Assembly (NCBI GenBank): GCA_947073765.1
Contig: CAMTMZ010000030.1
Coordinates: 1-33,011, forward strand
Direction: 5' to 3'
Length of the DNA: 33,011 bases
DNA from: an uncultured Bacillota bacterium
Lineage (GTDB): Bacteria > Bacillota > Clostridia > Oscillospirales > Oscillospiraceae
The translations under genes were made by a program, and so were the position numbers. Below, one piece after another: positions 6,236 to 33,011 of the stretch. Within the stretch, counting starts at the first letter, position 1. Every line of letters starts with the position of its first letter. The notes under the pieces were generated by a model. That model was not told the origin of the DNA. It was given only the letters and a program-made list of their open reading frames with translations, and did no database searches.

Positions 6236-6250
6236 CGAGCTTTCTCTCCC

Positions 6251-7513: not shown

Positions 7514-7543
7514 AAATTGATTACTCCTTTATCGCGCAGCCAG

Positions 7544-9055: not shown

Positions 9056-9076
9056 AATGATTAACACCTCCTTTGG

Positions 9077-9586: not shown

Positions 9587-9632
9587 CTCATGTTCTCCTT
9601 TCGAAAGATTCTGTCTTGTCCGGCCCGGGGAA

Positions 9633-9664
9633 ACGGTCGGCGGGCGGATCCGCCCGCCGACCGT
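9633..9664 (-). promoter_or_regulatory. 32-bp perfect palindrome between tctC and tctB
   Basis: A GC-rich inverted repeat without a spacer (arms 9633-9648 and 9649-9664, centred on GGATCC) lies inside the operon, 22 bases after the tctC stop. In RNA it would form a very stable hairpin followed by only three U residues. This fits a partial terminator or an RNA-stabilising element that raises binding-protein over membrane-subunit expression, as known for other binding-protein operons. Function is inferred. Confidence 0.7.
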
Positions 9665-9686
9665 GGTGCGGTTTTCTTGGGGGCAA

Positions 9687-10730: not shown

Positions 10731-10773
10731 GGTTCATTCTCCTTTTTATAAAGCAGTCTGTTTACGTTCTTTA

Positions 10774-11901: not shown

Positions 11902-11937
11902 ATGTTTCACTCCTAATCTGTCCTGCTTTCCACGCTC

Positions 11938-13197
11938 TCATACCTTAACGCATCCAAGCTCACGAAGGGCACACTGATTCACATAGTCAAAGACATTTAG
12001 GAACACCTTCTCTGAGCCCATACCCCCAGATTTGGATACCACAGTCAACTCATAGCCATCCAGCTTCAAATGGGAGAGGATTACTCCCGGTTCAATTTCC
12101 TCCATGAGGGTAATCTCAAAGGAACAGGCTTCGGACACAACTCCCTTCAAGGTATCCCCTCCGGTAACCACCAAGGTCCCCCGGAACCCTTTCTCCGCCA
12201 GAGAAAGGGCTAGTCTTCCCAGGTTTGCCGATATAATACCGCTAATATTAATGCTTTTATCCCTGCAAACAGCCCCGTTCTCCTCTTTTTTCAAAGGCAA
12301 ATCGCTGTCCACCGTCTCTAAGATCAGCCGGCTATGTTTATCCATCTGTTCTAAAATAGAATTTGCTGCCTGGTCCATGTCCTCCATTACTTGGACCGTG
12401 TATTTCTGATCCAGCAGCATGGCAGGAACATTGTGCAGCTTTACCATCCGGGACTGTCTCAAGGTAATCGGGTTCAGACTTCCCGCCAGAATAAGCACTT
12501 TCCGGTCATAGACAAATGTCTGGCAGTCCGCCCGCTGGAGCCTCATTGTTTTGGCCCAAAACTCTGCAAATCCGGCACAGCCTGCCAAAAGTATCGGTTG
12601 AGTCGTTTGCTTCAGCGCATCGGCAGCGGCACACAGCTCCTCATCCGTCCGGGCGTCGAACACAGTGATTCCAGAGGGTGCAACTGCCATTTCCCCGCTC
12701 TTGTTCAATCGGACCGGGCGGCTGCACTGGCCTTGGATCACCTTCGGTATGTAGGACTCGGTCACCGGCTCGAAAAGGTCCTTGCCGAACACAGATTCGT
12801 TCACCGGCTTGTTATCAATATAGAGAACACCATCCTTGGTATAGCGTCCCAGCTTTGGGAACGCAGGAATATAGGCCAACCGGTCAATCCCGGTCCCGGC
12901 CATCAGCCCATCCAATTCGGCGCCGATGTTTCCTCGGAGCGCAGAATCCGTTTTTTTATAAATCTGGGCGATTCCGGCGGCGGCTGCCCGCTGCCCGATT
13001 TCTCGAAGGATGTAAAAGGCTTTCTCTGGGGCAATATGCCTGGTTTCGGTGTCAATAACTAAAACTTTCGCCTCTGTCTCATCAAAAGAGATTTTTGGGT
13101 CAGTGGTCACACAAGTTTTTGCACCGAACTTCACGAACTGTACTCCGGTGTCTAATGCACCTGTGAAGTCATCTGTCAAAATCAAAAGCTGTAACAT
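11938..13197 (-). CDS. Four-carbon acid sugar kinase (DUF1537 family)
   Basis: A 419-residue kinase of the DtnK/DenK/OtnK type. The N-terminal substrate domain has ILTDDFTGALDTG (residues 6-18) and KKTDSALRGNIG (about 84-95), followed by the family pattern of PAFP, DG, NKPVNES and a conserved Ser/Tyr stretch. The C-terminal nucleotide domain has VVTGGDT (about 341) and KSGGMGSEKVF (about 392). It would phosphorylate O4 of a C4 sugar acid such as D-threonate or D-erythronate, making the PdxA2 substrate. It lies 36 bases upstream of pdxA2. DtnK versus DenK or OtnK specificity cannot be decided from sequence alone; absence of a class II aldolase (OtnC) favours the PdxA2 route. Confidence 0.88.
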   Translation of the reverse strand: MLQLLILTDDFTGALDTGVQFVKFGAKTCVTTDPKISFDETEAKVLVIDTETRHIAPEKAFYILREIGQRAAAAGIAQIYKKTDSALRGNIGAELDGLMAGTGIDRLAYIPAFPKLGRYTKDGVLYIDNKPVNESVFGKDLFEPVTESYIPKVIQGQCSRPVRLNKSGEMAVAPSGITVFDARTDEELCAAADALKQTTQPILLAGCAGFAEFWAKTMRLQRADCQTFVYDRKVLILAGSLNPITLRQSRMVKLHNVPAMLLDQKYTVQVMEDMDQAANSILEQMDKHSRLILETVDSDLPLKKEENGAVCRDKSINISGIISANLGRLALSLAEKGFRGTLVVTGGDTLKGVVSEACSFEITLMEEIEPGVILSHLKLDGYELTVVSKSGGMGSEKVFLNVFDYVNQCALRELGCVKV

Positions 13198-13244: not shown

Positions 13245-14402
13245 TCAGAGGACTGTCTGATAAATGCTTCTGATCTCGTCCAGCGTCAATTCTTTTCGGT
13301 TGTTAGAGAGCAGCCGGGTTACCTTGCTGCCCGCATCCACCAGCCACTCCAGATCTTCCTTAGGGACATTGAAAGCGGCCAGACTGGCGGGAATCCGCAT
13401 GAAGGAAACGATATCTTCGATCTCCTGAATCATATGCTCCACTTTCCAGTCATCGCTCTTTTGAGAGCGCTCGGGCCAGACAATGTCGCTCAGGACGGCG
13501 AAACGCTCCTTACAGGCGTCCCGATTCATCCGCATGACAGGAGCAAATAGGATCGCGTTGGAGACGCCGTGCGGGATATGGTACCTGCCCCCCAAAGGGT
13601 AGGACAGCGCATGAACCGCAGTGGTTCCGCTGGCAGTGATGGCCAAGCCGCCCAGGTGGGCACCCAGCAGCATGCTCTCCTTGGCCTTCATATTGTCCGG
13701 CTCCGCATAGGCCGCCTAGATGTTGTGGAAAACTTTTTTAGCACCCATGCCGGCGTACACATCACTGATGGGATTGGCTTTCAAAGATGTAAAACACTCC
13801 ACCACATGAGTCAAAGCGTCCACACCGGTAGCAGCCACCAGCTTGGGGGGCAGGCGCCGAATCAGTTCCGGCTCCAGCAGCACAATGTCAGGAATCATCT
13901 CATCGTTAACGATGCCCACTTTCATATTTTCCTCCGGAACCGCCACAATGGCATTGCAGGTGGCCTCGGCGCCGGTGCCGCAGGTGGTTGGCAGCATGAT
14001 AGTTTTCAATTTTTTCTTCCCCAACTTGGGGTTGTTCAGCAAGTCCCGGACACTCAGCTTATGATCCGCCAGCATGGAGCAGAGTTTTGCGGAATCCATC
14101 ACGCTGCCGCCGCCCAGAGCAATGATAATATCAGCCGCATTTCCCCGGACAAAGGAAGCCATCTCGTCTACCGCCATGTAGCTGGGCTCAGCCGGGATCT
14201 GGTCATAAACTTTCCAGGATACCTGGCACTTGTCCACCACATCAGTTAACAGTTTAAGCAGCCCTGAGGAGGCCACGCCCTGGTCAGTGAAAATCACGGC
14301 CATCTTGACCCCGTGCTGGGGAAACAGTTCTTCCAGCTGGTGGATACACCCCGCCCCGGCATAGAGGCAGGAGGGAGATTTTTCGAAATAGATTTTGTTC
14401 AT
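13245..14402 (-). pseudogene. Iron-containing alcohol dehydrogenase with an in-frame amber stop
   Basis: Two pieces (14402-13716 and 13715-13245) lie in the same frame, separated only by a TAG codon near 13716-13718. Read through it, the protein has 385 residues, normal for group III iron alcohol dehydrogenases. The N part shows GGGSVMDSAK (nucleotide site), TTCGTGAEAT and GVDALTHVVE. The C part shows HALSYPLGGRYHIPHGVSNAILF with the metal-binding histidines. The stop falls in the helix FHNI-x-AAYAEPDN, where homologs usually have a polar residue, so one substitution explains it. It would be the first gene of the sugar-acid operon, perhaps an oxidoreductase for a hydroxy acid or semialdehyde. 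Readthrough or a sequencing error is possible. Confidence 0.85.
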
Positions 14403-14706: not shown

Positions 14707-15519
14707 ATGACTACATTAGAGCGCAAAATGACCGACCACTTAAAACAGATGCGGGAGGAATACAACCTTATTGGCATCAAAACTGAGTTTGAGGGTGAGG
14801 GTGCCCGCATGGATGAACTCTTCCGTCTAAAAGAGATGACCATGAACGCCGGTGTGGATATCGTCCTAAAGATTGGCGGCGCCGAGGCCCTTACCGACCT
14901 TCGTAACGCCCGCACGATCGGCGCCAAAAAAGTAGTTGCCCCCATGGTGGAAACTGAGTTCGCCGTTCAGAAGTTTATGGACATGTTCGCCAAGGTTTTC
15001 CCGGCTGACGAGGGCCACGACACGATCCCTTGCATCAATGTTGAGACCATTACCGGCTCTCAGCATTTTCAAAAGATGATTGAATTGGAGGCTTTCCCCC
15101 GGGTGGGCGAGGTGGTCATTGGCCGAGTGGATATGACTCGTTCCTTGGGGCTGACCTATGCCGACTTAAACTCCGAGCCCGTTTATGAGGCCTGCGCCCG
15201 TATTTTCCAGAAAGTCAAAGAGGTTGCCCCCTCTAAAGAGTGTGTTATGGGCGGTATCTCCAATTTTGAGGCGTTCGACTTCCTAAAGCGCTTTGGTCCC
15301 GGCATTGTAGACGCCTATGAGCTACGCAAGGCGATCTACCATGTAGCCGAGGGCTGGGAAAAAGCTGCGAAAGTCGGCCTTATGAAAGGTTACGAATTTG
15401 AAATCATGTGGTATACTTATAAACAGAATTACTACTCCGCCATTTCCACTGAAGATCTGCAATATTGCGAGAAGATCAAGCGCAACTATCAAAATATGGA
15501 GGCTGCCTTGGGTAAATAA
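14707..15519 (+). CDS. HpcH/HpaI aldolase/citrate lyase-beta-like protein
   Basis: A 270-residue TIM-barrel protein. Conserved elements include IGIKTEFEGEG (about 22-32), AGVDIVLKIGGAEAL, VVAPMVETEFAVQKF and CINVETITG, in which the glutamates resemble metal-binding residues of the HpcH/citrate-lyase-beta family. These enzymes cleave C-C bonds of hydroxy or oxo acids or their CoA esters. The start has an ATAAGGAGG ribosome site. It is divergent from the kinase/PdxA2/Tct operon and cotranscribed with the PrpR-like regulator 53 bases downstream. It could be the cleavage step of the pathway or a ligand-generating enzyme for the regulator; both are guesses. Confident on fold, not on substrate. Confidence 0.75.
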   Translation: MTTLERKMTDHLKQMREEYNLIGIKTEFEGEGARMDELFRLKEMTMNAGVDIVLKIGGAEALTDLRNARTIGAKKVVAPMVETEFAVQKFMDMFAKVFPADEGHDTIPCINVETITGSQHFQKMIELEAFPRVGEVVIGRVDMTRSLGLTYADLNSEPVYEACARIFQKVKEVAPSKECVMGGISNFEAFDFLKRFGPGIVDAYELRKAIYHVAEGWEKAAKVGLMKGYEFEIMWYTYKQNYYSAISTEDLQYCEKIKRNYQNMEAALGK

Positions 15520-15572
15520 AACCTTTGAGGGGCAGGGCGGAACCCCGCCGTCCAATTTAGGAGGTTGTACAT

Positions 15573-17420
15573 GTGAAACATCTAAAAATTCTTCTTGTGG
15601 CCCCCTATCAGAATTTGGCCGACATTTTCTTGGAGACGTCTAAAGAATTCCCTGAGATCCTCCTCGAGACCTTTGTGGGCAACTTGGAAGACGGCATCCG
15701 ATATTACCAGGAACTTATCGCGATCCGAAATTTCGACATCATTCTCTCCCGGGGCGGGACCGCCTCCATGCTGAAAGACGTGTCCCCTATTCCCATTGTG
15801 GATATTGAAGTATCTGTTTATGATATGCTCCGTGCTATCAAGAGCGCGGAGCAATATGGCCAGCCTTTCGTTGTGGTGGGCTTTGCGAACATCACCGAAA
15901 CTGCCCGCCTTCTGCGGGATATGCTGAACCTGTCATTGGATATCCGAGATATCTCCAGCAGCGCAGAGGTGGAGGAGTACTTATCCGGTCTGCTGGCACA
16001 GGGGAAAAATCCGCTGGTGCTGGGGGATATGGTTACTGTGGAACAGGCTAAGGCACTGGAGATGAAAAATCTGCTCATTACTTCGGGCAAGGAAAGTGCG
16101 GTCAAGGCATTTCAGGACGCTATTACGCTCCACCAAAATCTCCGGCTTGTCAAACGGGACGGCCAGATGTTCCGTTCCATTCTGGACAACAGCAAGGGCA
16201 GTCGGGTAGTCTTTAACTCCCAGGGGAAAATTGTTTACTCCAACCTCTCCTCTGCAGATGTCAACACACTGCAGCTGTTAGATATCCTTTCAAAAAATGT
16301 GGAGACCCTCAAGCAAAAAAAGCAGATTACCCTGACCCGAAAACGCAAGGGTCAGCGGCTGGAGATCTACGGCACCGAAATTATTGAGGATTGGGATTCG
16401 TTCTACTCATTCTTCATCGACTTCCGCAGCGGTCTGTCCAACAGTATGCCCAACGTTATCTCAGTAAATGACAAAAGCGAGGTCAGCCAGATGCAGGACG
16501 ACCTGCTCTGCTCCCCCACCTATATACAACCCATCATTTCCGCCTATGGTAGCAAGAAATTTCTCAAGGTTCTCTCTACTCACACCCCCATTTTTATCGG
16601 GGGTGAGCCAGGCACCGGAAAGGACTCGTTTGCCTACAGCCTCTATTTTAACTACCAGCGCGACACATCTTTCTTTATCACCATCAACTGCCCCTTGCTC
16701 AATGAAAAAGTCTGGCAGGCCATCGTCAACGATCCCAACTTTCCCCTCTGCGGTCAGGGTCATACCATCTACTTCAAGGATGTCCACGCGCTTTCCCCGG
16801 CCATGCAGAAAAACCTGGAACTCTATTTCGAGGACACACTCCCCCATAATCGGCACCAGATTATCTCCTCCGGCTCCCGCAACCTCTACGATCTGGCTCT
16901 GGATGACAACTTTATGCGGGCACTCTACTCTAAACTCTGCGGGATCACCGTCTGCCTCCCCGCCCTGCGAAATCGAAAAGGTGATCTGCCGGTCTTTGCT
17001 AATATGCTCATTCAGCGCTTTAACGGTGAGTTTTCTAAACAGGTGATCGGCTTTCAGAGCGATGCGCTCAAATTGCTGTGCAACTACGAGTGGAAGCTCA
17101 ATATGGCCCAACTGAAACAGATCGTCCGTCAACTGGTTATCATGGCGGATGGCTATTACATCTCCGCCGACCAGGTGGGCGAGGCGCTCTCCTCCATCAA
17201 GGAGTCAGATGCCCCGGTTTCCTCTCTAGATCTGACCCGTACACTGGATGAGATCGAACGGGATATCATCAATCGGGTCCTGGTAGACGAGAATATGAAC
17301 CAGTCCAGCGCGGCGAAACGGCTGGGCATTGGCCGGACTACATTGTGGCGCAAGCTCAGCTATGCCCCCGCCTCCACCCCCGGCAAGAGGCCCCGTTCCA
17401 GTCAACAAGAACCCGTATAA
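15573..17420 (+). CDS. PrpR-type transcriptional regulator with degenerate AAA+ domain
   Basis: A 615-residue protein starting at GTG with AGGAGG upstream. An N-terminal PrpR_N sensor fold (residues 5-185) carries LSRGGTA (58-64) and PIVDIEVSVYDML. A PAS-like stretch follows (about 195-285), then an AAA+ domain with intact Walker A GGEPGTGKDS (343-352). Between Walker A and B the usual GAFTGA loop that contacts sigma-54 is missing, and the spacing is about 14 residues shorter than normal. Walker B reads IYFKDV, lacking the Glu of DE. The usual YYRL arginine is Lys (LYSKL). A Fis-type helix-turn-helix ends the protein (about 570-597). It probably regulates the divergent carboxylate operon without sigma-54, as TyrR does. 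The ligand is likely a small carboxylate. Confidence 0.85.
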   Translation: MKHLKILLVAPYQNLADIFLETSKEFPEILLETFVGNLEDGIRYYQELIAIRNFDIILSRGGTASMLKDVSPIPIVDIEVSVYDMLRAIKSAEQYGQPFVVVGFANITETARLLRDMLNLSLDIRDISSSAEVEEYLSGLLAQGKNPLVLGDMVTVEQAKALEMKNLLITSGKESAVKAFQDAITLHQNLRLVKRDGQMFRSILDNSKGSRVVFNSQGKIVYSNLSSADVNTLQLLDILSKNVETLKQKKQITLTRKRKGQRLEIYGTEIIEDWDSFYSFFIDFRSGLSNSMPNVISVNDKSEVSQMQDDLLCSPTYIQPIISAYGSKKFLKVLSTHTPIFIGGEPGTGKDSFAYSLYFNYQRDTSFFITINCPLLNEKVWQAIVNDPNFPLCGQGHTIYFKDVHALSPAMQKNLELYFEDTLPHNRHQIISSGSRNLYDLALDDNFMRALYSKLCGITVCLPALRNRKGDLPVFANMLIQRFNGEFSKQVIGFQSDALKLLCNYEWKLNMAQLKQIVRQLVIMADGYYISADQVGEALSSIKESDAPVSSLDLTRTLDEIERDIINRVLVDENMNQSSAAKRLGIGRTTLWRKLSYAPASTPGKRPRSSQQEPV

Positions 17421-23045: not shown

Positions 23046-24992
23046 TTAGTTTAGCCGGAACTTGCGCGCCAAGCTATTCATCAGCAGGGATTGATCCGAC
23101 AATTCCTGTGCGGTAGCGGCGCTTTGCTCCGAAGTGGCAGAGGTACTTTGAATAACGGAAGATATTTGGTCGATTCCCTCGGTTACCTGAGAGATCGCTG
23201 TAGTCTGACTTTCTACCGCTTCCACAACCGCATCCACTTTAATCGTTACATTTTCCGCAATGGAGTTGGTTTTGTCCAATGATTCCGTTACTTTTGCAAC
23301 CACTTGGCCGCCCTCTGCAACGGCACTGATCGACCCCTCTATCAGCTCCTTGGTGGCTTTGGCCGCCTCGTCAGACTTAGCCGCCAAATTACGCACCTCA
23401 TCAGCCACCACAGCAAAGCCCTTTCCCGCGCTGCCTGCCCGGGCCGCCTCCACGGCGGCGTTTAGGGCCAGGATATTGGTCTGGAACGCAATGTTTTCGA
23501 TCGTATCGATGATTTTGCCGATCTCTGTGGAGGAGCTGGAGATCTTCTCCATAGCGGTGTTCAGTTCCTGGACATAATTCACGCTGACTCCCAGCTGCGC
23601 ACCTGCCTGGGCCACAAAATGCCCGGCTTCCTCAGCAGCGGCCGCGGTCTGCCTGGCGTTCTCTGCGATGCTGTCGGCAGTGGCGGACAATTCATGGATT
23701 GCGCTGGCTTGCTCCGTGGCCCCCTGGCTCAGTGATTGCGCGCCGTTGGATACCTGAACGGCGCTGCTGGCCACGGTTCCGGCGGACTGATTGATTTGTG
23801 AAAGCGTATCCTTCAAGGAATTGTGGATGGTTTTAATGGACTGCTCCATGGTTACAAAGTCGCCCAAATAGGTACGAGTGATCGTTTCACGGAAATCTCC
23901 CTGGGCCATTTTGCCCAAATGAAGGGACACATCCTGCGCCACATCGTTTAAACGGGACAGCATAGTTTCCAGCGCCCTTGCCAGCTGGGCAGTTTCATCC
24001 TTGGACTTTACATGGGGGGACGGTGTGTGTAAATCTCCGTCGGCCATCTTCTGGAGCCGGGCAACACAGGATTGAATTGGGCCGGAGATAGACCTGCCTA
24101 CTTTGACTGCTACAGGGAATGTGGCGAGCACAACGAGGACTACCACCAGAACCGTCAGCATAATGCTCCGGTCCAAAGTAGATTTAAGTTCCCGCTGGCT
24201 GGTCTCAATGGCTATGCTCCACTCCTGATGGCCGTCAATGGGAGCGAAGCCCACAAATTTGTTGTCACCATAAAAGTTATATGCCCCGAAACCGGTTTCT
24301 CCCTGGAGCATACGCTGATTCACATCAGCCACATCAGCCACGCTTGGGTCCGTTTTTGCCGCTTCAATCATGTTGGAGCCCTCTTCTACAATGGAAGCCT
24401 CTCGATGACCGATGACATTCCCTTTGTTGTCCAGCACATAGGCTACGCCGCTGCTGCCAATAGACAAATTTCTTACAATATCTGACAGAAAATCAGCACT
24501 GATTCCACCATAGACTACACCGTCGAAGCGGCCGTTGGTGATGATAGGTACCTCCAACAGGAAGATCATCTGCTGTCCGTCGTTCATAATATCAGAGATA
24601 TAGGGTTTCATTGTAGATTTGCACTGTTGAAAATAATCTTCTTCTGCGTAGCTGTATCCCGTGGAAGAAAACCCGCTGGCATCCATTTTGCCAACGTAGA
24701 GAAAGCCGTTGCGCTGGGCGATATCCTCCCGAAGGGGAATCAGCTCTGGAGCAGTCGGATCAGATTCCCGGAAAATATCAGAGGCGGCGGCCTCTTGGAG
24801 CGCCGTCCAGTAGTTTCCCATTTTCCATTCCACAGCGTCTGCGGCCATCTGTGTAGCGGGACCCAAAGTCTTTGTCGTAACATCATCAATTCCGCTTGCG
24901 TTCAGCAGGGCTGTAATCACACCAATCAGCACCGATCCGACCAGCACTACCGACAACATACTGATTTGGATTTTTGATTTGATCGATTTCAT
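23046..24992 (-). CDS. Methyl-accepting chemotaxis protein with dCache sensor
   Basis: A 648-residue chemoreceptor. Membrane segment 1 lies at about 8-30 and an external double-Cache domain at about 35-275 (containing EEDYFQQC, YISDIMNDGQ and GGISADFLSDIV). Membrane segment 2 is at about 277-297, HAMP at about 298-350, and a signalling domain follows with the hairpin-tip region GKGFAVVADEVRNLAAKSDEAAKAT. ATG 24992 has AAGGAAGG 6 bases upstream; the longer in-frame form starting at 25046 has no good site. It should report ligand binding to CheA/CheW. No other chemotaxis gene is in the window. The typical amino-acid R-x-W-Y Cache motif was not seen, so it may sense a carboxylate or another ligand. 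Confidence 0.93.
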   Translation of the reverse strand: MKSIKSKIQISMLSVVLVGSVLIGVITALLNASGIDDVTTKTLGPATQMAADAVEWKMGNYWTALQEAAASDIFRESDPTAPELIPLREDIAQRNGFLYVGKMDASGFSSTGYSYAEEDYFQQCKSTMKPYISDIMNDGQQMIFLLEVPIITNGRFDGVVYGGISADFLSDIVRNLSIGSSGVAYVLDNKGNVIGHREASIVEEGSNMIEAAKTDPSVADVADVNQRMLQGETGFGAYNFYGDNKFVGFAPIDGHQEWSIAIETSQRELKSTLDRSIMLTVLVVVLVVLATFPVAVKVGRSISGPIQSCVARLQKMADGDLHTPSPHVKSKDETAQLARALETMLSRLNDVAQDVSLHLGKMAQGDFRETITRTYLGDFVTMEQSIKTIHNSLKDTLSQINQSAGTVASSAVQVSNGAQSLSQGATEQASAIHELSATADSIAENARQTAAAAEEAGHFVAQAGAQLGVSVNYVQELNTAMEKISSSSTEIGKIIDTIENIAFQTNILALNAAVEAARAGSAGKGFAVVADEVRNLAAKSDEAAKATKELIEGSISAVAEGGQVVAKVTESLDKTNSIAENVTIKVDAVVEAVESQTTAISQVTEGIDQISSVIQSTSATSEQSAATAQELSDQSLLMNSLARKFRLN

Positions 24993-25086
24993 ACATGACC
25001 TTCCTTTTACCCATTTTTTATTTAGGGCGAGAGAGTGCGTTTTCAAACAAAATGTGCGATTTTTGGCTGCGCCCTAAATCCTTGAT

Positions 25087-25770: not shown

Positions 25771-26721
25771 TCAGAGCACGGGGCTTGTCAGCACTTTTCC
25801 GGTCAGGACCTCGTCACAGCCCTTTGCCGCGCCGAGGGAGGATCGGCTCTTAGACTCGCGGGTGCTGCCGCCGCAGTGGGGTGTCAAGATCACATTGTCC
25901 AGCGCCCACAGCGGAGAATCTGCGGCGACGGGCTCCAGTTCCGTGGCGTCAAGCCCCGCGCCGGCAATTTCTCCCGCCTGCAGCGCGGCAATAAGAGCCG
26001 ACTCGTCTACCAGACTGCCCCGGGCCGTGTTGATCAGATAGGCGCTGTTTTTCATCAGCGCAAACTCGCGTCTGCCAATTCCGTGCCTGTTGTCCGCCGT
26101 CGCGGCCATATGGAGAGTGATAAAGTCAGCCTGACGGAAGATATCGTCCCGATCCTCTGCCAGGACGGCGTAGTCCGGGAGGGACTCCGGCTTGCAGAAG
26201 GGGTCGAACACCAGGATATTCATTTGAAAGCCGTCGTGGGCCATGGCGCCCATGCACCGGCCGATCTGCCCATACCCAAAGATGCCCAGCGTTTTTCCGG
26301 AAATCTCCACGCCGGAGGCTCGCTTGCGCGCCTCCTTGAACTGTCCGGCGCGGTAGGTGTTCTGCAGGGTGTTGAAGGTCTTTGCACAGGCCAGAATCAG
26401 CAGCATGGCGTGCTCCGCCACGGCCGTACTGTTGCTCCCGCGGGTATTGACAACACGCACCTTGTGGCGCGCGCAGCTCTCCAGATCCACGGTGTCTACG
26501 CCGGAACCGTGTCTGGCAATGACCTTCAGACGGGGACAGCGGGAAATCACGGCGTCGCTCATCACAGCGAGACGGGGAATTACCCCATCACAGTCCTGCA
26601 AATCTGCAATCAGCGTCTCCTCATCGGTGCCCCGGGCGTATTTGACCTGATAGCCGTGGGCGCGGAGCCAGTCGGGACCATCCTCCGACATGGGCTCGGT
26701 GATTAAAATCCGATACTCCAT
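25771..26721 (-). CDS. D-isomer-specific 2-hydroxyacid dehydrogenase (SerA-like)
   Basis: A 316-residue NAD(P)-dependent dehydrogenase of the phosphoglycerate/glycerate/hydroxyisocaproate dehydrogenase family. The Rossmann motif is GYGQIG (149-154), with NTARG containing catalytic R234, E263 in ELEP and catalytic H282 in PHCGG. The length is that of single-domain-pair members without the SerA ACT regulatory domain. The start has AGGAGG upstream. It follows the HpaI-type aldolase gene by 42 bases in the same operon. A likely role is reduction of a 2-oxo acid released by the aldolase, such as hydroxypyruvate, glyoxylate or a tartronate-level product. That role is inferred from context. Confidence 0.9.
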   Translation of the reverse strand: MEYRILITEPMSEDGPDWLRAHGYQVKYARGTDEETLIADLQDCDGVIPRLAVMSDAVISRCPRLKVIARHGSGVDTVDLESCARHKVRVVNTRGSNSTAVAEHAMLLILACAKTFNTLQNTYRAGQFKEARKRASGVEISGKTLGIFGYGQIGRCMGAMAHDGFQMNILVFDPFCKPESLPDYAVLAEDRDDIFRQADFITLHMAATADNRHGIGRREFALMKNSAYLINTARGSLVDESALIAALQAGEIAGAGLDATELEPVAADSPLWALDNVILTPHCGGSTRESKSRSSLGAAKGCDEVLTGKVLTSPVL

Positions 26722-26763
26722 AAAATGTTATCCTCCTGAAAATATGTTGCTGCGATTCTTCTG

Positions 26764-27573
26764 TTAGCCGCCGGCATCCGAACGGTGCTCCTTTATAGAG
26801 GAGAAGCTCCTGGCGGACGCAAGAATGCTCTTTTTTAGAATCGCCATATCCGAACCGACCGTAAACATGCGGCACCCCAGGTCGTATACCCGATCAAACT
26901 CTTCCTGAGACTGAAGCCCGCCCAGTCCGGCGTCGCCAAGGATCACATCGGAGGCGGCGACCGTCCGACAGACATACTCCACCGCCTGCCGTACCTCCGG
27001 CGTTACAACGCCGCCGTACCCCATATCCAGAGACAGATCCTTTGCACCGACCCGCAGAACGTCAATCCCGGTTGTCAGGATGTCGTCGAGGTTGCGGATT
27101 GCCTCCTGGCTTTCAATCATGCCAATGGCCATTACATTTTGATTGACCAGCGTCAGGTACTCCTCCGTGGGGATAAAGCCGTAGACGGAGGCCCTGGCGC
27201 TGTCGCCGAATCCGCGGTGCCCCAGCGGAGCGTACTTCACCTCACCGACTGCGTGGAGGGCCTGGTCCTTTGTGTAGATATGCGGGAAGATGATGCCCAT
27301 GACACCCGCCTCCAGCAGCTGGAGGATCAGACCGTCCTCATGGCTGGGAATACGCATGATGGGCACGGCGCCGCCCAGCTGTACGGCGCGGATCGCGTTC
27401 TCCGCAGTTTCAATATTGTAGGGAAAGTGCTCCCCCTCCAAAAAGACGTAGTCCAGATGACAGCAAGCGATCATCTCCGCCAGGAGCGGGGACCGGCTTC
27501 GGAGCTGACAGCCCAAAACAGCTTCGCCGCGTTTCATCTTGTCGAACATGGGGTTGTGCTGAACAGAAATCAC
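26764..27573 (-). CDS. HpaI/HpcH-family class II aldolase
   Basis: A 269-residue pyruvate-type class II aldolase. Active-site residues of the HpaI family are visible: H49 in EGEH, R74 in MRIP, metal ligands E154 in MIESQEA and D179 in GAKDLS, and the substrate loop GHRGFGDSARA (118-128). These enzymes split 4-hydroxy-2-oxo acids, giving pyruvate or a related enolate plus an aldehyde. The start is GTG, preceded by AAAGGTGG. Transcription is from the promoter at 27696-27724, divergent from the hydratase-transporter operon. With the hydratase and hydroxyacid dehydrogenase it forms a plausible hydrate-cleave-reduce route. The exact substrate is unknown. Confidence 0.88.
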   Translation of the reverse strand: MISVQHNPMFDKMKRGEAVLGCQLRSRSPLLAEMIACCHLDYVFLEGEHFPYNIETAENAIRAVQLGGAVPIMRIPSHEDGLILQLLEAGVMGIIFPHIYTKDQALHAVGEVKYAPLGHRGFGDSARASVYGFIPTEEYLTLVNQNVMAIGMIESQEAIRNLDDILTTGIDVLRVGAKDLSLDMGYGGVVTPEVRQAVEYVCRTVAASDVILGDAGLGGLQSQEEFDRVYDLGCRMFTVGSDMAILKKSILASARSFSSIKEHRSDAGG

Positions 27574-27651
27574 AAAAATCCACCTTTCTTGTGCTGCAAG
27601 GTCATGCCGGTCCGCCGCAAAATCGTTGGCACGCCAAGTGCGCAGCGTTTA

Positions 27652-27687
27652 TATAATGTATACATTATAAGATTTATTGAATAAATC
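27652..27687. promoter_or_regulatory. Two adjacent palindromes, likely repressor operators
   Basis: An 18-bp perfect palindrome (27652-27669, centre TGTATACA) is followed one base later by a 17-base palindrome with a single central base (27671-27687, arms GATTTATT and AATAAATC). Both lie just downstream of the expected start of the leftward transcript (about 27689). TGTATACA-centred sites are typical of GntR/FadR-type regulators, but no such gene is in the window. Confidence 0.6.
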
Positions 27688-27691
27688 CTGT

Positions 27692-27720
27692 TTGTATTAT
27701 ACACCAAACTGTGTTATTCT
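27692..27720 (+). promoter_or_regulatory. Candidate sigma-A promoter of the hydratase-transporter operon
   Basis: TTGTAT (27692-27697), 17-base spacer, TATTCT (27715-27720). It overlaps the leftward promoter on the other strand. The leader of about 95 bases contains a small inverted repeat, 27737-27743 with 27748-27754. Confidence 0.4.
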
Positions 27721-27724
27721 ACAA
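27696..27724 (-). promoter_or_regulatory. Sigma-A promoter of the aldolase-dehydrogenase operon
   Basis: On the minus strand TTGTAG (27724-27719), a 17-base spacer and a perfect TATAAT (27701-27696). The transcript would start near 27689, directly against the palindromes at 27652-27687, a good arrangement for repression. Confidence 0.55.
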
Positions 27725-27820
27725 GAAAAGTAGCTATCGTATTTTGCAATACGAAATTTAACCATCTGGTTATAGGCAGGCATTCTGAGGTGCTTGAGGA
27801 CAGAGAGGGGCAGTGCGTGT

Positions 27821-30097
27821 ATGAAAAATGGGATAACAGTTTTGCCCTATGCCGTATACATGACGGAGCAGGGGGAGGGCCTCCCCGCGCGGGAAGCGGA
27901 GGAGCGCCTGGGACTGCGGAATGTCGCGGGGCTGCGTGAGAACACCATGGCATACCGCATTCTGCGGGCGCACGACAGGAGCCGCCGGAAGGGCGCCATG
28001 GAGCTGTCCATGGATGCGCTGGTATCCCCGGACAATGTTTATGTCAGCATCATCCAGACAGCGCGGGCCAGCGGGCTGAGGGAATTTGTGCTCCCCTTCG
28101 TCCTGACCAACTGTCACAACAGCCTCTGCAGCGTGGGGGGGACCATCAACGAGGATGACCACCAGTTCGGCCTGTCCTGCGCGAAACGCTATGGAGGGAT
28201 CATGGTCCCCGCCTATCAGGCGGTGATCCACCAGTTTATGCGGGAATGCATGACCTCCTGCGGCAGCATGGTGATGGGGGCCGACAGCCACACCCGGTAC
28301 GGCGCGCTGGGAACGATTGGGATCGGCGAGGGGGGCGGCGAGCTGGTGAAACAGCTGCTGGGACAGCCTTATGAGCTGAGCGATCCGCAAGTGGTCGCCG
28401 TCCTTCTGAAGGGCCGCCTGCGGCATGGCATTGGGCCCCATGACGTGGCGCTTTCACTCACGAGCGCCCTGTTCGCTTCCGGGATCGTACGGAACAAGCT
28501 CCTGGAATTCCGGGGCGGCGGCGTGTCCGGGCTGTCCATGGATATGCGCATAGGAATCGACGCGATGACTACGGAGCTGGCCGCGCTCTCCTCCCTGTGG
28601 ATTACCGATGACAGGACCAAGGAATTTTACTGCCGGCACGGCAGGGGTGACGCCTTCCGGGAGATCCGCCCGGAAGCGCCCGCCTGTTATGACGGCGTCA
28701 TCGAGGTCGATCTGGACAAGATCCAGCCCATGATTGCCCTTCCCTTCCATCCCAGCAACGCCTATCCCATCCGGGAGTTTCAGGAAAACGCCCGTGAGAT
28801 CATCTCCGGCGTGGAGGCGGAGGGGCGCAGAACGATGGAGAATTTCTCCCTGCAAAAGCACTTTACGGACGGACGCTTCCGCGTTCAGCACGGCACGGTG
28901 GCGGGCTGTACCGGCGGACTATATGAGAACATCTGCGCGGTACGGAACATTCTCAAGGAGTTCCCCGGCCTTGCCTCGGATCAGTCGCTGCATATCTTCC
29001 CGGCCAGCCAGCCAATCTATCATCAACTTGCCGAAACGGGCGCCGCGGCGGATCTCTCCGCCGCCGGAGCGGTGCTGCTCTCCGCCTCCTGCGGACCGTG
29101 CTTCGGCGTACAGGACATCCCGGCAAATAACCGCCTGAGTATGCGGCATATAACCCGCAACTTCCTCAACCGGGAGGGGGCCCGCCCTTCCGGAGGGCAG
29201 GGCGCCGGGGTTGCGCTGATGGACGCCCGGTCCATTGCGGCCACGCTCTGTGCGGGCGGCGTGCTGACCGGCGCCGATACGATAGAGTATGACGAATCCG
29301 TCCCGCCTGATCGGTTTGACGGGGACATGTACCGTCGCCAAATCTACTGGGGATACGGACAGGCAGACCACGTCACGCCGGTGGAGCTCGGTCCCAATAT
29401 TACGGACTGGCCCGAATTGGACAAGCTGCCCGCGCATCTGCTGCTCCAGGTCTCCGGTGTGTACGGGGGATCAGTGACGACGGATGAGCTGGTTCCTTCC
29501 GGAGAGGCGTCGGCCTATCGCTCCAATCCGGAAAAGCTGGCCGCCTTCACCCTTCAAAACCGGGATCCGGAATACTTCCGGCGGGCGTCGGCCCTTCGTG
29601 ACTTTTCTCGGAAATACCGCCTGGGAGAGGGCAGGGAGGCGGACGAGTCCCTGGACCGGTGCTGCCGGGCGCTGGAGGCAATACTTGGGTGTACCCGTCA
29701 TGAGCTGGGGGTGGGCAGCGTCATACTCTGCAGCCAGATCGGGGATGGGTCAGCCCGCGAGCAGGCGGCCAGCTCTCAGCGGATCCTCGGCGGATGGGCC
29801 AATATTGCGACAGAATATGTGACCAAGCGGTACCGCTCCAATCTCATCAACTGGGGAATGCTGCCGCTGCTGACCGAACAGCCGCTGCCCCTGAAGGAGG
29901 GGGATCTTCTCCTGCTTCAGGACGTCCGGGCAGGCGTTGAAACAGGCGCGCGGCAATTCACAGCGATCCATGTCAACGGCGCCGGAGAAAAAATAGCCGC
30001 CTACCCCCTGATCTGTCCGGCGCTCTCGGAGGAGGAACGGGAGCTTCTGCTCTCCGGGTGTCTCATCAACCGCTTCCGCCAACAACGTATTCCATGA
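27821..30097 (+). CDS. YbhJ-type aconitase-superfamily hydratase
   Basis: A 758-residue single-chain hydro-lyase. Its length and layout resemble E. coli YbhJ, a putative hydratase of unknown substrate. Cluster ligands are C363 in AGCTGG, and C424 and C427 in SCGPC. GADSHTRYGALG (153-164) is the substrate loop. The C-terminal swivel domain (about 600-758) has IGDGSAREQAA, matching the aconitase GSSRE loop: the catalytic Ser and Arg are kept and the middle Ser is Ala. ATG 27821 gives a length close to YbhJ; an in-frame TTG at 27794 with GAGGTG upstream is possible. It is first in an operon with a tripartite carboxylate transporter, so it likely acts on the imported acid. Confidence 0.85.
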   Translation: MKNGITVLPYAVYMTEQGEGLPAREAEERLGLRNVAGLRENTMAYRILRAHDRSRRKGAMELSMDALVSPDNVYVSIIQTARASGLREFVLPFVLTNCHNSLCSVGGTINEDDHQFGLSCAKRYGGIMVPAYQAVIHQFMRECMTSCGSMVMGADSHTRYGALGTIGIGEGGGELVKQLLGQPYELSDPQVVAVLLKGRLRHGIGPHDVALSLTSALFASGIVRNKLLEFRGGGVSGLSMDMRIGIDAMTTELAALSSLWITDDRTKEFYCRHGRGDAFREIRPEAPACYDGVIEVDLDKIQPMIALPFHPSNAYPIREFQENAREIISGVEAEGRRTMENFSLQKHFTDGRFRVQHGTVAGCTGGLYENICAVRNILKEFPGLASDQSLHIFPASQPIYHQLAETGAAADLSAAGAVLLSASCGPCFGVQDIPANNRLSMRHITRNFLNREGARPSGGQGAGVALMDARSIAATLCAGGVLTGADTIEYDESVPPDRFDGDMYRRQIYWGYGQADHVTPVELGPNITDWPELDKLPAHLLLQVSGVYGGSVTTDELVPSGEASAYRSNPEKLAAFTLQNRDPEYFRRASALRDFSRKYRLGEGREADESLDRCCRALEAILGCTRHELGVGSVILCSQIGDGSAREQAASSQRILGGWANIATEYVTKRYRSNLINWGMLPLLTEQPLPLKEGDLLLLQDVRAGVETGARQFTAIHVNGAGEKIAAYPLICPALSEEERELLLSGCLINRFRQQRIP

Positions 30098-30130
30098 AGC
30101 GAAGGCTTCTAAATAATTAGGAGGTAATTT

Positions 30131-31156
30131 ATGAAAAGAAAGCTATCCGCATTCCTTGTGCTCGCACTCACCCTGTCCCTTGCGCTGGCCGGCTGCGGAA
30201 AGACGCCCGCCAACCCCGCGCCTGCCGAAAGCGATGTCTCCTCCCCGGCTGAGAATAACTTCAAATTCACAGAGAATATGACCATCGTGGTTCCCTACAA
30301 GGCCGGCGGAGGCGTCGATGTGGCGATCCGCGCCCTGTTGGAGGCCGGCCTGCGGGATCAGCTGGGGACCTCCGTCACGGTGGAAAATGTGGGCGGAGGC
30401 AACACGCTTATCGGCGCACAGCAGGTCCTCGGCGCCCCGGCGGACGGCTACACCCTGTTTGTCAACACCTGTGCCGCTTTCCTGGCCGCGCCGCAGATGT
30501 ACGACAATCCCTACACGCTTGACGACTGGCAGTATATCACCACGCTGGGCGTAACGGAGCTGCTGGTGGCGGGAGGTCCTTCGGCGCCTGCTGACACGGT
30601 GGATGAGCTGATTGCCTTCGGCAAGGAGAACGCAGACGGCGTGACCGTCGGCTGCGCCGGGTACGGCGACATTTCCGCACTGGCCGCCTTCATTACGCTG
30701 GGGGCCATGGGGGTAAAGTGCCAGCTGGTCCCCTATGACGGCGCGGCAGAGAGCGTGGCCGCCTGCCTGGGCGGACATGTCCAGTATGTCTGTGCCACGG
30801 CCAGCACCATCGCCTCCCACTGTGAGGAGGGCACCATGACCGCGCTGTACGAGACCGGATCGCTGGACGACAACAGCCTCGGTGTTCCCTCAATCTCCTC
30901 TCTGGGCTATGCGGACGCCGCCACGCCCTACTACCGGCTTGTCGCGGTGACAAAGGATGTGCCGTCCGACACGGTGGAGGCGCTGCGCGCCGCCTTCAAG
31001 GCCGTATTGGAAAACCCCGACGCCGTTGCCAAAATGGCGGAATCCAAGCAGATCGTGAAGGACGTGGTCAACGACCCGGACGAGCTGAAAGCGCTGATCG
31101 AGAAGGACTACGCCGCTTACGGCGAGCTGGTCAGCACACTCGATCTGGAGGGCTGA
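30131..31156 (+). CDS. tctC: Tripartite tricarboxylate transporter substrate-binding lipoprotein TctC (Bug family)
   Basis: A 341-residue binding protein with a lipoprotein signal (MKRKLSAFLVLALTL, lipobox ALAGC with the lipidated Cys at about residue 22) and a short Pro/Ala/Ser linker. The Bug-family start FTENMTIVVPYKAGGGVDVAIRAL follows; the AGGG-VD loop usually binds a ligand carboxylate. Later blocks include GGNTLIGAQQVLGAPADGYTL. AGGAGG lies just upstream, 33 bases after the hydratase stop. It differs clearly from the TctC at 9687-10730 in its binding loops (PAAPGGAMET there), so the two transporters probably take up different acids. Confidence 0.92.
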   Translation: MKRKLSAFLVLALTLSLALAGCGKTPANPAPAESDVSSPAENNFKFTENMTIVVPYKAGGGVDVAIRALLEAGLRDQLGTSVTVENVGGGNTLIGAQQVLGAPADGYTLFVNTCAAFLAAPQMYDNPYTLDDWQYITTLGVTELLVAGGPSAPADTVDELIAFGKENADGVTVGCAGYGDISALAAFITLGAMGVKCQLVPYDGAAESVAACLGGHVQYVCATASTIASHCEEGTMTALYETGSLDDNSLGVPSISSLGYADAATPYYRLVAVTKDVPSDTVEALRAAFKAVLENPDAVAKMAESKQIVKDVVNDPDELKALIEKDYAAYGELVSTLDLEG

Positions 31157-31189
31157 TTCTGCTCAATCCGACGAAGGAGCGTGAACACA

Positions 31190-31660
31190 ATGAAGGAATC
31201 CCTCATCCGGAACTATAAGCTGACCTCCCTGGAGAAGGTCCTGGCGGCAGTTCTGCTGCTGCTGGGGATCGGGATGCTCTATGTCATCCACATCAGCGGC
31301 TGGTTCTCATCCGCAAAATCCGTTATCAACAATCCCGGTTTTCTTCCGCAGATCGTTGCGATCGGCCTGATCGCCGTGAGCGTGATTCTCACGGCGGACT
31401 CCCTCCGGAAGGATCGCAACGAGACGGTTACGATCAACTGGTTCGGGATCCTGATCGTGGCCCTGTGGGTTCTCTACGCCTTTCTGTGCAGCTGGCTTGG
31501 CTTCATCCTCTCCAGCATCCTGGTTCTGCTCGCCACCCTGTTCCTCTTCGGCGCGAAGAATAAGCGGGCAGTCCTGCTGACCAGCATCCTGGCCCCTGTC
31601 CTGCTGTACCTGATGCTTGGCCTGATGTTAGGCGTCAAACTTCCCACCTTGTTTCTGTAA
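31190..31660 (+). CDS. tctB: Tripartite tricarboxylate transporter small membrane subunit TctB
   Basis: A 156-residue protein with four hydrophobic segments (about 14-35, 47-62, 83-103 and 105-150), including LEKVLAAVLLLLGIGMLYV and the FLPQIVA turn frequent in TctB proteins. ATG 31190 was preferred over a GTG 9 bases upstream because AAGGAG then has normal spacing. It lies between tctC and tctA in the usual order. A GC-rich hairpin (31666-31699) follows its stop. Confidence 0.87.
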   Translation: MKESLIRNYKLTSLEKVLAAVLLLLGIGMLYVIHISGWFSSAKSVINNPGFLPQIVAIGLIAVSVILTADSLRKDRNETVTINWFGILIVALWVLYAFLCSWLGFILSSILVLLATLFLFGAKNKRAVLLTSILAPVLLYLMLGLMLGVKLPTLFL

Positions 31661-31665
31661 TCGGA

Positions 31666-31699
31666 CCCCTCCACCGGGAAGGCCTCCCCGGCGGAGGGG
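31666..31699 (+). promoter_or_regulatory. Intercistronic hairpin between tctB and tctA
   Basis: CCCCTCC (31666-31672) pairs with GGAGGGG (31693-31699), and an inner CCGGG/CCCGG pairing adds five pairs across one mismatch. It lies 6 bases after the tctB stop and just before the tctA ribosome site. It could stabilise mRNA or tune tctA translation. Confidence 0.55.
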
Positions 31700-31715
31700 A
31701 GAAGGGAGATAAGAC

Positions 31716-32807
31716 ATGTTCGATTTGCAACTTATGGCCCAGGGCTTTGCCGGTATCGTATCGCCGCCGAGCCTGCTCCTGATGGCGCTGGGTGTTTTCT
31801 GCGGGGCGGTTTTCGGCTCCATTCCCGGCCTGACCGGCGGCATTGCCATCGCCATACTGCTGCCGCTGACCTTCAAGCTGGAGGCAATCCCGTCGATGGC
31901 GCTGCTGATTGGCGTCTATGTGGGCGGCGCCTTCGGCGGGTCGATCCCCGCCATTCTCTTCGGAACTCCCGGCGCGCCCGAAGCCAGCGTGACCTCCTTC
32001 GACGGCTATCCGATGATGAAGAAGGGGCTGGGCGGCAAGGCGCTCAAGACGGCGCTCTATGCCTCCTGCGCGGGAAACTTCCTGGCCTCCCTTGTCACCA
32101 TTTTCATGATGGTGGGCGTCTCCAGGCTGGCGCTGATGATGGACTCTCCGGATTACTTCGGCGTTGTCCTCTTTTCCATTGTGCTGATTGCGACCGTGGG
32201 CTGCAGGGAGAGCTGGATCAAGGGACTGATTTCCGTGCTGCTGGGGCTCATGTTCGGTCTTGTGGGCGGCGATCCGCTGACCGGAACGCTGCGCTTCACC
32301 TTTGGGAACCGCTATCTGATGAGCGGGTTTTCCCTGATTCCCGTGCTGATCGGCCTCTTTGTTGGCGCGGAGGTGCTCTCCGAGGCCGGCATCAAGCGTC
32401 AGCGGCAGGTGGACACGGTCCGCGAATTTAAGGAAAACAATAAAATTACCCGGCAGGACGTTCGCAGGTGTCTCCCCGGCGTCCTCTCGGGCACGGTGAT
32501 TGGATCCATCATCGGCGCGCTGCCCGGTTTGAACGCCGCCATCAGCGCCACTCTGAACTACTCCTTTATCCAGAAGGTCTCCAAGGACACCGAGAGCTTC
32601 GGCGAGGGTAATATTGCCGGCGTCGCGGCGGCGGAGGCGGCCAATAACGCCACGGCCGGTCCCACCCTTGTTCCGCTGCTGACCCTGGGTATCCCCGGCA
32701 GCGGCACCGCCGCTATCTTCCTGGGCGCCCTGACCATCCAGGGCATTGTCCCCGGCCCCACAATCTTCCGTGACGCCGGAGATGTTGTCTCAATGTCAAT
32801 AACCTAA
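31716..32807 (+). pseudogene. tctA: TctA transporter subunit, truncated after 363 codons
   Basis: The sequence matches TctA from its start (GSIPGLTGGIAIAILLPL, GGAFGGSIPAILFGTPGAPEA) through GALPGLNAAISAT, AAEAANNATAGPTLVPLLTLGIPGSGTAAIFLGAL and GIVPGPTIFRDAGDVV. It then diverges to SMSIT and stops. Normal TctA proteins are about 500 residues (the other copy here is 503), so about 140 residues and several membrane helices are missing. The break, near 32785-32793, coincides with a switch to AT-rich sequence. The product is probably non-functional as it stands, so this transporter may be inactive unless another TctA substitutes. Confidence 0.85.
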
Positions 32808-33011
32808 CAAGCAAGAGCTAAGAATTATCGTAAAATAGAGGGAAAGCACTGGTGAGGGCGCTAGATGGCTCAGGAAATGGGCATGATAAAGTGGCAGATC
32901 AAACATCTGCAAAAGGCACGTAATATGAGAAATTCTTAAATAAATTATGGCAATCTGTAAAGGAAGCTGACAGGATATTTAACCGTCGGATGTCGAGGCG
33001 ATGCCCGGCCT
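32794..33011. mobile_element. Unrelated AT-rich sequence interrupting tctA, possible insertion-element end
   Basis: From about 32794 the sequence begins TGTCAATAACC and bears no relation to TctA. It contains an AAGAATTATCG block and no long ORF, only short frames such as one starting at ATG 32864 (24 codons). A TG start with AT-rich end sequences would fit an IS21-like element whose transposase lies beyond the window. No terminal repeat or target duplication can be tested because the other end is not included. Confidence 0.3.

What the first reader, a model, noticed from the sequence alone, without database searches (positions are those of the whole stretch)
25771..32807. Candidate undescribed pathway built on a YbhJ-type hydratase
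A single-chain aconitase-family hydratase of the YbhJ type (function unknown in E. coli) heads an operon with a tripartite carboxylate importer. It is divergent from an HpaI-type aldolase and a D-2-hydroxyacid dehydrogenase. The set suggests uptake of a hydroxylated di- or tricarboxylate, (de)hydration or isomerisation, aldol cleavage to pyruvate or a relative plus a 2-oxo/aldehyde product, then reduction. The cluster cysteines and the swivel-loop Ser and Arg are intact. The pathway order is inference; the gene grouping is seen directly.
Basis: partly seen in the sequence, partly recalled or inferred. Interest (0 to 1): 0.75.

Follow-up and report, generated by a model that had tools for sequence, protein, structure and literature searches.

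The report
Divergent aconitase paralogue in uptake cluster
A gut-type anaerobe carries a fast-evolving second copy of an aconitase-like enzyme beside a carboxylate importer, an aldolase and a dehydrogenase, and comparing its relatives suggests that the enzyme family, described in print as inactive in E. coli, works as an aconitase in many anaerobes.

Summary
The genes are real. The hydratase (27794-30097) passes NCBIfam's YbhJ model (914 bits, cut-off 641) and keeps the family's residues at all 15 active-site positions checked. TctCBA follows, but tctA is cut short near the contig end.

The reading changes. Ordinary YbhJ probably works as an aconitase: citrate synthase or isocitrate dehydrogenase lies within 2.5 kb in 57 of 80 named and 20 of 100 unnamed loci; of 394 genomes of the order, 154 have YbhJ, 194 the PRK07229 aconitase, none both; this genome's other YbhJ lies in a citrate-lyase/TctCBA island. 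A 2014 paper calls E. coli YbhJ catalytically inactive.

The window copy is a far-diverged paralogue: 43 of 256 conserved columns changed, next highest 19 of 252. The full gene set was found nowhere else. HpaI-SerA recurs with TctCBA in two other genomes, an amidohydrolase replacing YbhJ. A perfect 18-bp palindrome lies between the divergent operons.

Best reading: import of a citrate-like tricarboxylate, (de)hydration, pyruvate-forming aldol cleavage, 2-oxoacid reduction. Substrate unknown.

The parts
27794..30097 (+). Diverged YbhJ-type aconitase-family paralogue (767 codons from TTG; ATG at 27821 likelier)
30131..31156 (+). TctC, substrate-binding protein of a tripartite tricarboxylate transporter
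   Evidence: PF03401 104 bits; nearest solved by sequence BugD 2f5x; no relative at E<=1e-45 in 199 other genomes of the family
31181..31660 (+). TctB, small membrane subunit
   Evidence: PF07331 59 bits
31716..32807 (+). TctA, large membrane subunit, cut short near the contig end
   Evidence: PF01970 362 bits but only model positions 1-342 of 423; foreign sequence from about 32790 (by eye)
26764..27573 (-). HpaI-type class II pyruvate aldolase
   Evidence: PF03328; closest NCBIfam models GarL/HpaI, below their cut-offs; closest solved structures by sequence 1dxe, 2v5j
25771..26721 (-). SerA-like D-2-hydroxyacid dehydrogenase without regulatory domain
   Evidence: PF02826 and PF00389; nearest solved by sequence 1wwk; 82% and 69% identical to the gene after HpaI in L264 and L265
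27652..27669 (.). Perfect 18-bp palindrome TATAATGTATACATTATA in the divergent promoter, candidate shared operator
   Evidence: single match in the window at up to 3 mismatches, 0 in 100 shuffles
27737..27754 (.). Second short dyad TCGTATT-4-AATACGA in the same gap
   Evidence: short, may be chance

Best explanation
Ordinary YbhJ (PRK11413) works as a single-chain aconitase. It is its own branch of the aconitase superfamily, not a member of the classical aconitase subfamilies, and takes their place in many anaerobes. The window protein is a diverged paralogue of it, recruited into a small catabolic unit. TctCBA imports a citrate-like tricarboxylate. The paralogue, with an intact [4Fe-4S] site, hydrates or isomerises it. 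An HpaI-type aldolase cleaves a resulting 4-hydroxy-2-oxoacid to pyruvate and a second carbonyl acid. The SerA-like dehydrogenase reduces the 2-oxoacid product to a D-2-hydroxyacid, disposing of electrons in an anaerobe. The two divergent operons are probably controlled from one palindromic operator. Shown: genes, order, family membership, retained active-site residues, divergence of this copy, recurrence of HpaI-SerA with TctCBA, the palindrome. Inferred: aconitase activity of YbhJ, the class of substrate, the order of the steps, shared regulation.
For: Family works as aconitase: citrate synthase or isocitrate dehydrogenase within 2.5 kb in 57 of 80 named loci and 20 of 100 unnamed loci. YbhJ (E<=1e-150) in 154 and PRK07229 aconitase in 194 of 394 genomes of the order, overlap 0 where chance gives about 76. 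This genome's other copy lies among citF, citE, citXG, citC and TctCBA; citF within 9 kb in 6 of 100 unnamed loci. G858 has YbhJ with TctBAC, PrpF and a fumarate-reductase-like flavoprotein. E. coli ybhJ deletion lowers NADPH, as icd deletion does (PMC4054840, section read). Window copy: 43 of 256 conserved columns changed against 19 of 252 for the next and a median protein at 1 of 250; end branch 1.79 against median 0.28; 15 of 15 active-site positions as in the family. One unit: HpaI at E<=1e-45 in 3 of 200 family genomes, SerA directly after it and TctCBA nearby in all 3; palindrome.
Against: 76 of 100 unnamed YbhJ loci have neither citrate synthase nor isocitrate dehydrogenase within 8 kb, and only 7 of 100 have citrate synthase there (many flanks are cut short). 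46 of 394 genomes have neither YbhJ nor PRK07229 aconitase, and the exclusion rests on E-value limits and is not corrected for shared descent. The full gene set occurs only here in everything searched; HpaI is within 9 kb of YbhJ in 0 of 180 other loci. In the two relatives with HpaI-SerA-TctCBA the first enzyme is an amidohydrolase and TctC is only about 25% identical to the window's, so the pair may serve another substrate. The changed columns do not cluster next to active-site residues in sequence (16 of 63 against 26 of 177 at +-5, p = 0.08), so relaxed selection explains them as well as a new substrate does. TctA is interrupted at the contig end. No bench evidence for aconitase activity of any YbhJ was seen; one paper states the opposite for E. 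coli, another links the E. coli ybhHI genes to L-malate use (passages). The NADPH effect is shared with four genes not known for NADPH production.
Confidence: 0.5

Rival explanations
1. The window copy is just a second ordinary aconitase (citrate/isocitrate) under relaxed selection beside a citrate importer; HpaI and SerA are unrelated neighbours.
For: All active-site and substrate-binding positions kept; this genome's other YbhJ sits with TctCBA and citrate lyase; HpaI is within 9 kb of YbhJ in no other locus examined; changed columns are not enriched near active-site residues.
Against: Divergence is extreme for the family. Nothing in the cluster would obviously use isocitrate: the genome has no Pfam citrate synthase or isocitrate lyase match, and its only Iso_dh match lies beside a LeuC-type gene and is probably LeuB (96% complete). 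HpaI-SerA recurs with TctCBA.
Confidence: 0.25
2. The paralogue works on a dicarboxylate (citramalate, dimethylmalate, tartrate type), as the aconitase-family dimethylmalate dehydratase does in nicotinate fermentation (recalled).
For: Pyruvate-forming cleavage after an aconitase-type step has that precedent (recalled); some changed columns flank active-site residues, for example P449L between the two kept arginines.
Against: The arginines that match aconitase R447, R452, R580 and R644 (numbering recalled) are all kept. HpaI aldolases need a 4-hydroxy-2-oxoacid, which these acids are not (recalled).
Confidence: 0.12
3. HpaI-SerA is an independent pathway that only happens to lie divergent from YbhJ-TctCBA.
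For: In G389 and G1183 the pair occurs without YbhJ, with an amidohydrolase and a different TctCBA.
Against: The perfect palindrome in the 220-bp shared promoter and the repeated pairing with TctCBA, even a non-orthologous one.
Confidence: 0.15

Closest known systems
E. coli ybhHIJ (PrpF-family isomerase, tricarboxylate transporter, putative hydratase) with LysR gene ybhD
   Same: Same hydratase family with identical residues at the 15 active-site positions; a carboxylate transporter gene next door.
   Different: Window has TctCBA instead of YbhI, no PrpF, plus HpaI and SerA; window protein far more diverged.
Aconitase of the PRK07229 type and mitochondrial aconitase
   Different: YbhJ family has Cys for Asp before the active-site His and Ala for the second swivel-loop Ser; 24% identical to pig aconitase; scores far below the cut-offs of the classical subfamilies.
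Citrate fermentation island (TctCBA, citDEF, citXG, citC; set recalled)
   Same: TctCBA beside a YbhJ gene, seen on contig C25 of this same genome.
   Different: No citrate lyase gene was among the window genes annotated here; HpaI and SerA instead.
GarL/HpaI aldolase pathways for 2-keto-3-deoxy-glucarate and 4-hydroxy-2-oxoheptanedioate
   Same: Aldolase of the same superfamily, closest models GarL and HpaI.
   Different: Scores well below those models' cut-offs (126 of 393 and 119 of 369 bits); no aldarate dehydratase or 3-hydroxyacid-type reductase was among the genes annotated here.
TctCBA-amidohydrolase-HpaI-SerA cluster (L264, L265), not described in anything seen here
   Same: HpaI about 70% and SerA 69-82% identical, same order; TctCBA present.
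   Different: Amidohydrolase in place of YbhJ; LysR regulator; TctC about 25% identical to the window's.

Membership tests
YbhJ / PRK11413 (NF008503) | Whole-protein score above curated cut-off of 641 bits | tested here: met
   914 bits; full-length ordinary members score 1077-1340, so this is an outlier member
YbhJ / PRK11413 (NF008503) | Residues near-invariant in other YbhJ proteins | tested here: inconclusive
   15 of 15 active-site positions kept, but 43 of 256 near-invariant columns changed
Aconitase superfamily, active-site set | [4Fe-4S] cysteines, Asp-Ser-His, Glu, catalytic Ser and substrate arginines | tested here: met
   C363, C424, C427, D155-S156-H157, E252, S644, R446, R451, R567, R646 (roles and pig numbering recalled)
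Classical aconitase subfamilies (AcnA, AcnB, mitochondrial, PRK07229) | Score above NCBIfam cut-off | tested here: not met
   PRK07229 319 of 612 bits, mitochondrial 148 of 825, AcnA 111 of 686, AcnB 39 of 1287
Classical aconitase subfamilies (AcnA, AcnB, mitochondrial, PRK07229) | Asp-His pair and Ser-Ser-Arg swivel loop (recalled) | tested here: not met
   Cys-His and Ser-Ala-Arg, in the window, E. coli and C25 copies alike
Aconitase activity (works like) | Interconversion of citrate, cis-aconitate and isocitrate | not testable with these tools
   needs the purified enzyme; context evidence only
Tripartite tricarboxylate transporter | TctC, TctB and TctA together | tested here: met
   all three over Pfam cut-offs, TctA incomplete in this assembly
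HpaI / GarL aldolase equivalogs | Score above NCBIfam equivalog cut-off | tested here: not met
   119-126 bits against cut-offs of 369-407: superfamily member of unknown specificity
Phosphoglycerate dehydrogenase SerA | Score above TIGR01327 cut-off, with C-terminal regulatory part | tested here: not met
   256.5 of 454 bits, model positions 1-308 of 525

The most novel reading that the evidence does not exclude
The window enzyme is an aconitase-like enzyme turned oxalomesaconate-type hydratase: it makes 4-carboxy-4-hydroxy-2-oxoadipate, a citrate analogue that is both a tricarboxylate and a 4-hydroxy-2-oxoacid. HpaI cleaves it to pyruvate and oxaloacetate, and the SerA-like enzyme reduces a 2-oxoacid product. 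That would be an anaerobic route for oxo-tricarboxylates with an iron-sulfur hydratase where known enzymes are of another fold (recalled).
Probability: 0.12. Interest if true: 0.8.

Novelty: new variant of a known kind. Interest (0 to 1): 0.55.

Why it matters
E. coli ybhJ is still annotated 'putative hydratase', and one paper calls it a catalytically inactive aconitase paralogue. Zero overlap with PRK07229 aconitase in 394 genomes, and the citrate synthase, isocitrate dehydrogenase and citrate-lyase neighbourhoods, turn this into a direct prediction: YbhJ fills the aconitase step of glutamate synthesis and citrate metabolism in many gut anaerobes. A complementation test in an aconitase-negative E. 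coli K-12 strain would settle it. The window copy is a natural experiment in how such an enzyme diverges when placed beside a new aldolase.

Tried and rejected
Searched for a closer orthologue of the window YbhJ. Among the listed matches none exceeds 53% identity over the full length (partial ones up to 56%) in 394 genomes of the order, 64 of the genus and 391 of the class (the order list is cut at the weak end). Best was 52% in the 80 named loci kept of 95 found by a pattern scan that is not exhaustive. The 299-genome phylum search used the family model and gives no identities.

Suspected TctB/TctA after YbhJ in L027 and L031 from gene lengths alone; the translations did not look like them (by eye), so rejected.

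Tested whether the changed conserved columns cluster at active-site residues: not significant.

Sigma-70 promoter and terminator scan gave nothing above chance. Rfam scan of the window at gathering threshold: no match. The 227-bp contig tail matched no plasmid record and had no listed match elsewhere in the own genome, so the element that interrupts tctA is unidentified.

Considered isocitrate lyase followed by glyoxylate reduction: no PF00463 in the genome. Considered feeding an isocitrate dehydrogenase: the only PF00180 match, C5:10607-11659, lies about 0.5 kb from a LeuC-type match at C5:12139-13128, so probably LeuB; no PF00285 citrate synthase. Re-citrate synthase and other dehydrogenase families were not searched.

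Identifications resting on similarity or on reading the translation, without a Pfam run: TctCBA in L159, L174, L264 and L265, LysR and amidohydrolase in L265, LysR in L159 and L174. CitE of L159 is the best match of its protein but below the model's cut-off (357 of 443 bits); citD was not looked for.

Literature: ybhJ occurs in 21 held papers (listing only; some are plainly unrelated uses of the letters). Passages read in PMC4054840, PMC9068703 and PMC10645362 and section 7 of PMC4054840. Searches for YbhJ with aconitase or hydratase, for PRK11413, and for an aconitase gap in Gemmiger, Faecalibacterium or Clostridia turned up nothing, in what I saw, that assigns it aconitase activity. Two further gene-set searches gave nothing used. 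Most subscription papers are not held, including the 2002 AcnC paper that PMC4054840 cites for inactivity; I did not see it.


Full report
What is there. The window is the whole of contig C30 (33,011 bases) of a 2.33-Mb, 61-contig genome. Named relatives and the tree place it among Oscillospiraceae-like Bacillota (inference). In the region given, Pfam confirms on the minus strand a SerA-like D-2-hydroxyacid dehydrogenase (25771-26721) and an HpaI-type aldolase (26764-27573). Divergent from them on the plus strand are an aconitase-family protein (27794-30097), TctC, TctB and TctA. NCBIfam puts the aconitase-family protein in PRK11413, the E. coli YbhJ family, at 914 bits against a cut-off of 641. 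TctA stops short: it covers model positions 1-342 of 423 and runs into unrelated sequence about 220 bp before the contig ends.

What YbhJ is in general. Citrate synthase or isocitrate dehydrogenase lies within 2.5 kb of YbhJ in 57 of 80 named loci (many are Gemmiger and Erysipelotrichaceae) and in 20 of 100 unnamed loci (24 of 100 within 8 kb; so 76 of 100 have neither there, with many flanks cut by contig ends). In 394 genomes of the order, 154 have YbhJ at E <= 1e-150 and 194 have an aconitase of the PRK07229 type by my reading (193 over cut-off by the tool). No genome has both; chance would give about 76; 46 have neither. At least nine families hold the two kinds in different members (tables, grouped by hand). 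This is what replacement of one enzyme by another of the same function looks like, though shared descent is not corrected for.

The second copy in this genome is the most telling. It lies on contig C25 among citF, citE, TctA, TctB, TctC, a fused citX-citG and citC, a citrate-fermentation island. citF is within 9 kb of YbhJ in 6 of 100 unnamed loci and TctA in 5 of 100. In G858, YbhJ sits with a LarA-type racemase, TctBAC, a PrpF-type isomerase and a fumarate-reductase-like flavoprotein, which recalls tricarballylate/aconitate use (inference). The E. coli protein groups (SH-aLRT 99, quick tree) with three copies from two genomes, two of which lie beside citrate synthase and one near PrpF. A 2014 paper calls E. 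coli ybhJ a catalytically inactive paralogue of aconitase (passage). The same paper reports that its deletion lowers NADPH, as deletion of icd does, but so do deletions of four other genes not known for NADPH production (section read); this fits an active enzyme but is weak. Another paper links the neighbouring ybhHI genes to L-malate use (passages). YbhJ scores far below the cut-offs of the classical aconitase subfamilies (window copy) and departs from them at two active-site residues, so I do not file it under them; I hold that it works as an aconitase (about 0.8, inference).

Do the neighbours belong? HpaI-type aldolase was found within 9 kb of YbhJ in 0 of 180 other loci, so the exact set is not conserved. 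The aldolase-dehydrogenase pair is real, however. Of 200 genomes of the family, three have this HpaI at E <= 1e-45 (this one, G389, G1183). In all three SerA follows HpaI directly, and TctCBA is part of the cluster. In the two relatives the order is LysR | TctC-TctB-TctA-amidohydrolase-HpaI-SerA (LysR and amidohydrolase checked by Pfam in G389 only). Their TctC is about 25% and TctA about 34% identical to the window's, so importer and first enzyme differ while the pair stayed. In the window's 220-bp divergent gap lies a perfect 18-bp palindrome, TATAATGTATACATTATA (27652-27669), the only match in the window at up to three mismatches and absent from 100 shuffles. It is a candidate operator for both operons.

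How it most likely works. TctCBA takes up a citrate-like acid; the paralogue hydrates or isomerises it; HpaI cleaves a 4-hydroxy-2-oxoacid to pyruvate and a second carbonyl acid; the SerA-like enzyme reduces a 2-oxoacid to a D-2-hydroxyacid. The genome has no Pfam citrate synthase or isocitrate lyase match and a single Iso_dh gene close to a LeuC-type gene, so the usual users of isocitrate are not in evidence. The step order and the substrate are inference. The boldest reading not excluded is an oxalomesaconate-type hydratase step, because its product would be both a citrate analogue and an HpaI substrate; I give it 0.12.

Verdict. Observation confirmed with corrections; interpretation partly supported. 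The unit is a new variant of a known kind. The wider result, YbhJ working as the aconitase of many anaerobes against the printed label 'inactive' for E. coli, is the part worth testing first.

Noticed in passing
window 5714-13197 (-): A second carboxylate cluster on the same contig: LeuD-like and LeuC-like aconitase-superfamily subunits, TctA, TctB, TctC, PdxA2-type dehydrogenase and a D-threonate-kinase-like protein. The contig thus holds two importer-plus-aconitase-superfamily clusters.
   Followed up: partly
window 14707-17420 (+): A weak HpcH/HpaI-like protein (below Pfam's cut-off) followed by a PrpR_N-type sigma-54 activator, next to that second cluster; an Fe-dependent alcohol dehydrogenase frame lies at 13716-14402.
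   Followed up: no
window 23046-25046 (-): A methyl-accepting chemotaxis protein with a dCache sensor domain lies downstream of the SerA-like gene after about 720 bp; it might sense the cluster's substrate.
   Followed up: no
window 32790-33011: About 220 bp of unrelated sequence interrupts tctA and runs to the contig end; no plasmid match and no Rfam match at gathering threshold.
   Followed up: partly
L159 585-14671: Citrate-lyase island (citF, citE, citXG, citC, TctCBA) with an ordinary YbhJ in the middle and two LysR-type regulators (the LysR names are by eye).
   Followed up: yes
L174 6835-19900: YbhJ, LarA-type racemase, TctBAC, PrpF, an Fe-S/cytochrome b protein and a fumarate-reductase-like flavoprotein: a candidate tricarballylate/aconitate cluster.
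   Followed up: partly
L264 3999-11314 and L265 3770-11126: A LysR | TctC-TctB-TctA-amidohydrolase-HpaI-SerA cluster in two genera of the family; no description was met in the papers seen, and none was searched for by that gene order.
   Followed up: partly
YbhJ family, position C98 of the window protein (numbered from the ATG at 27821): The YbhJ proteins aligned have Cys before the active-site His where aconitase has Asp (recalled), and Ala for the second swivel-loop Ser; if YbhJ is active, this is an altered aconitase active site.
   Followed up: partly
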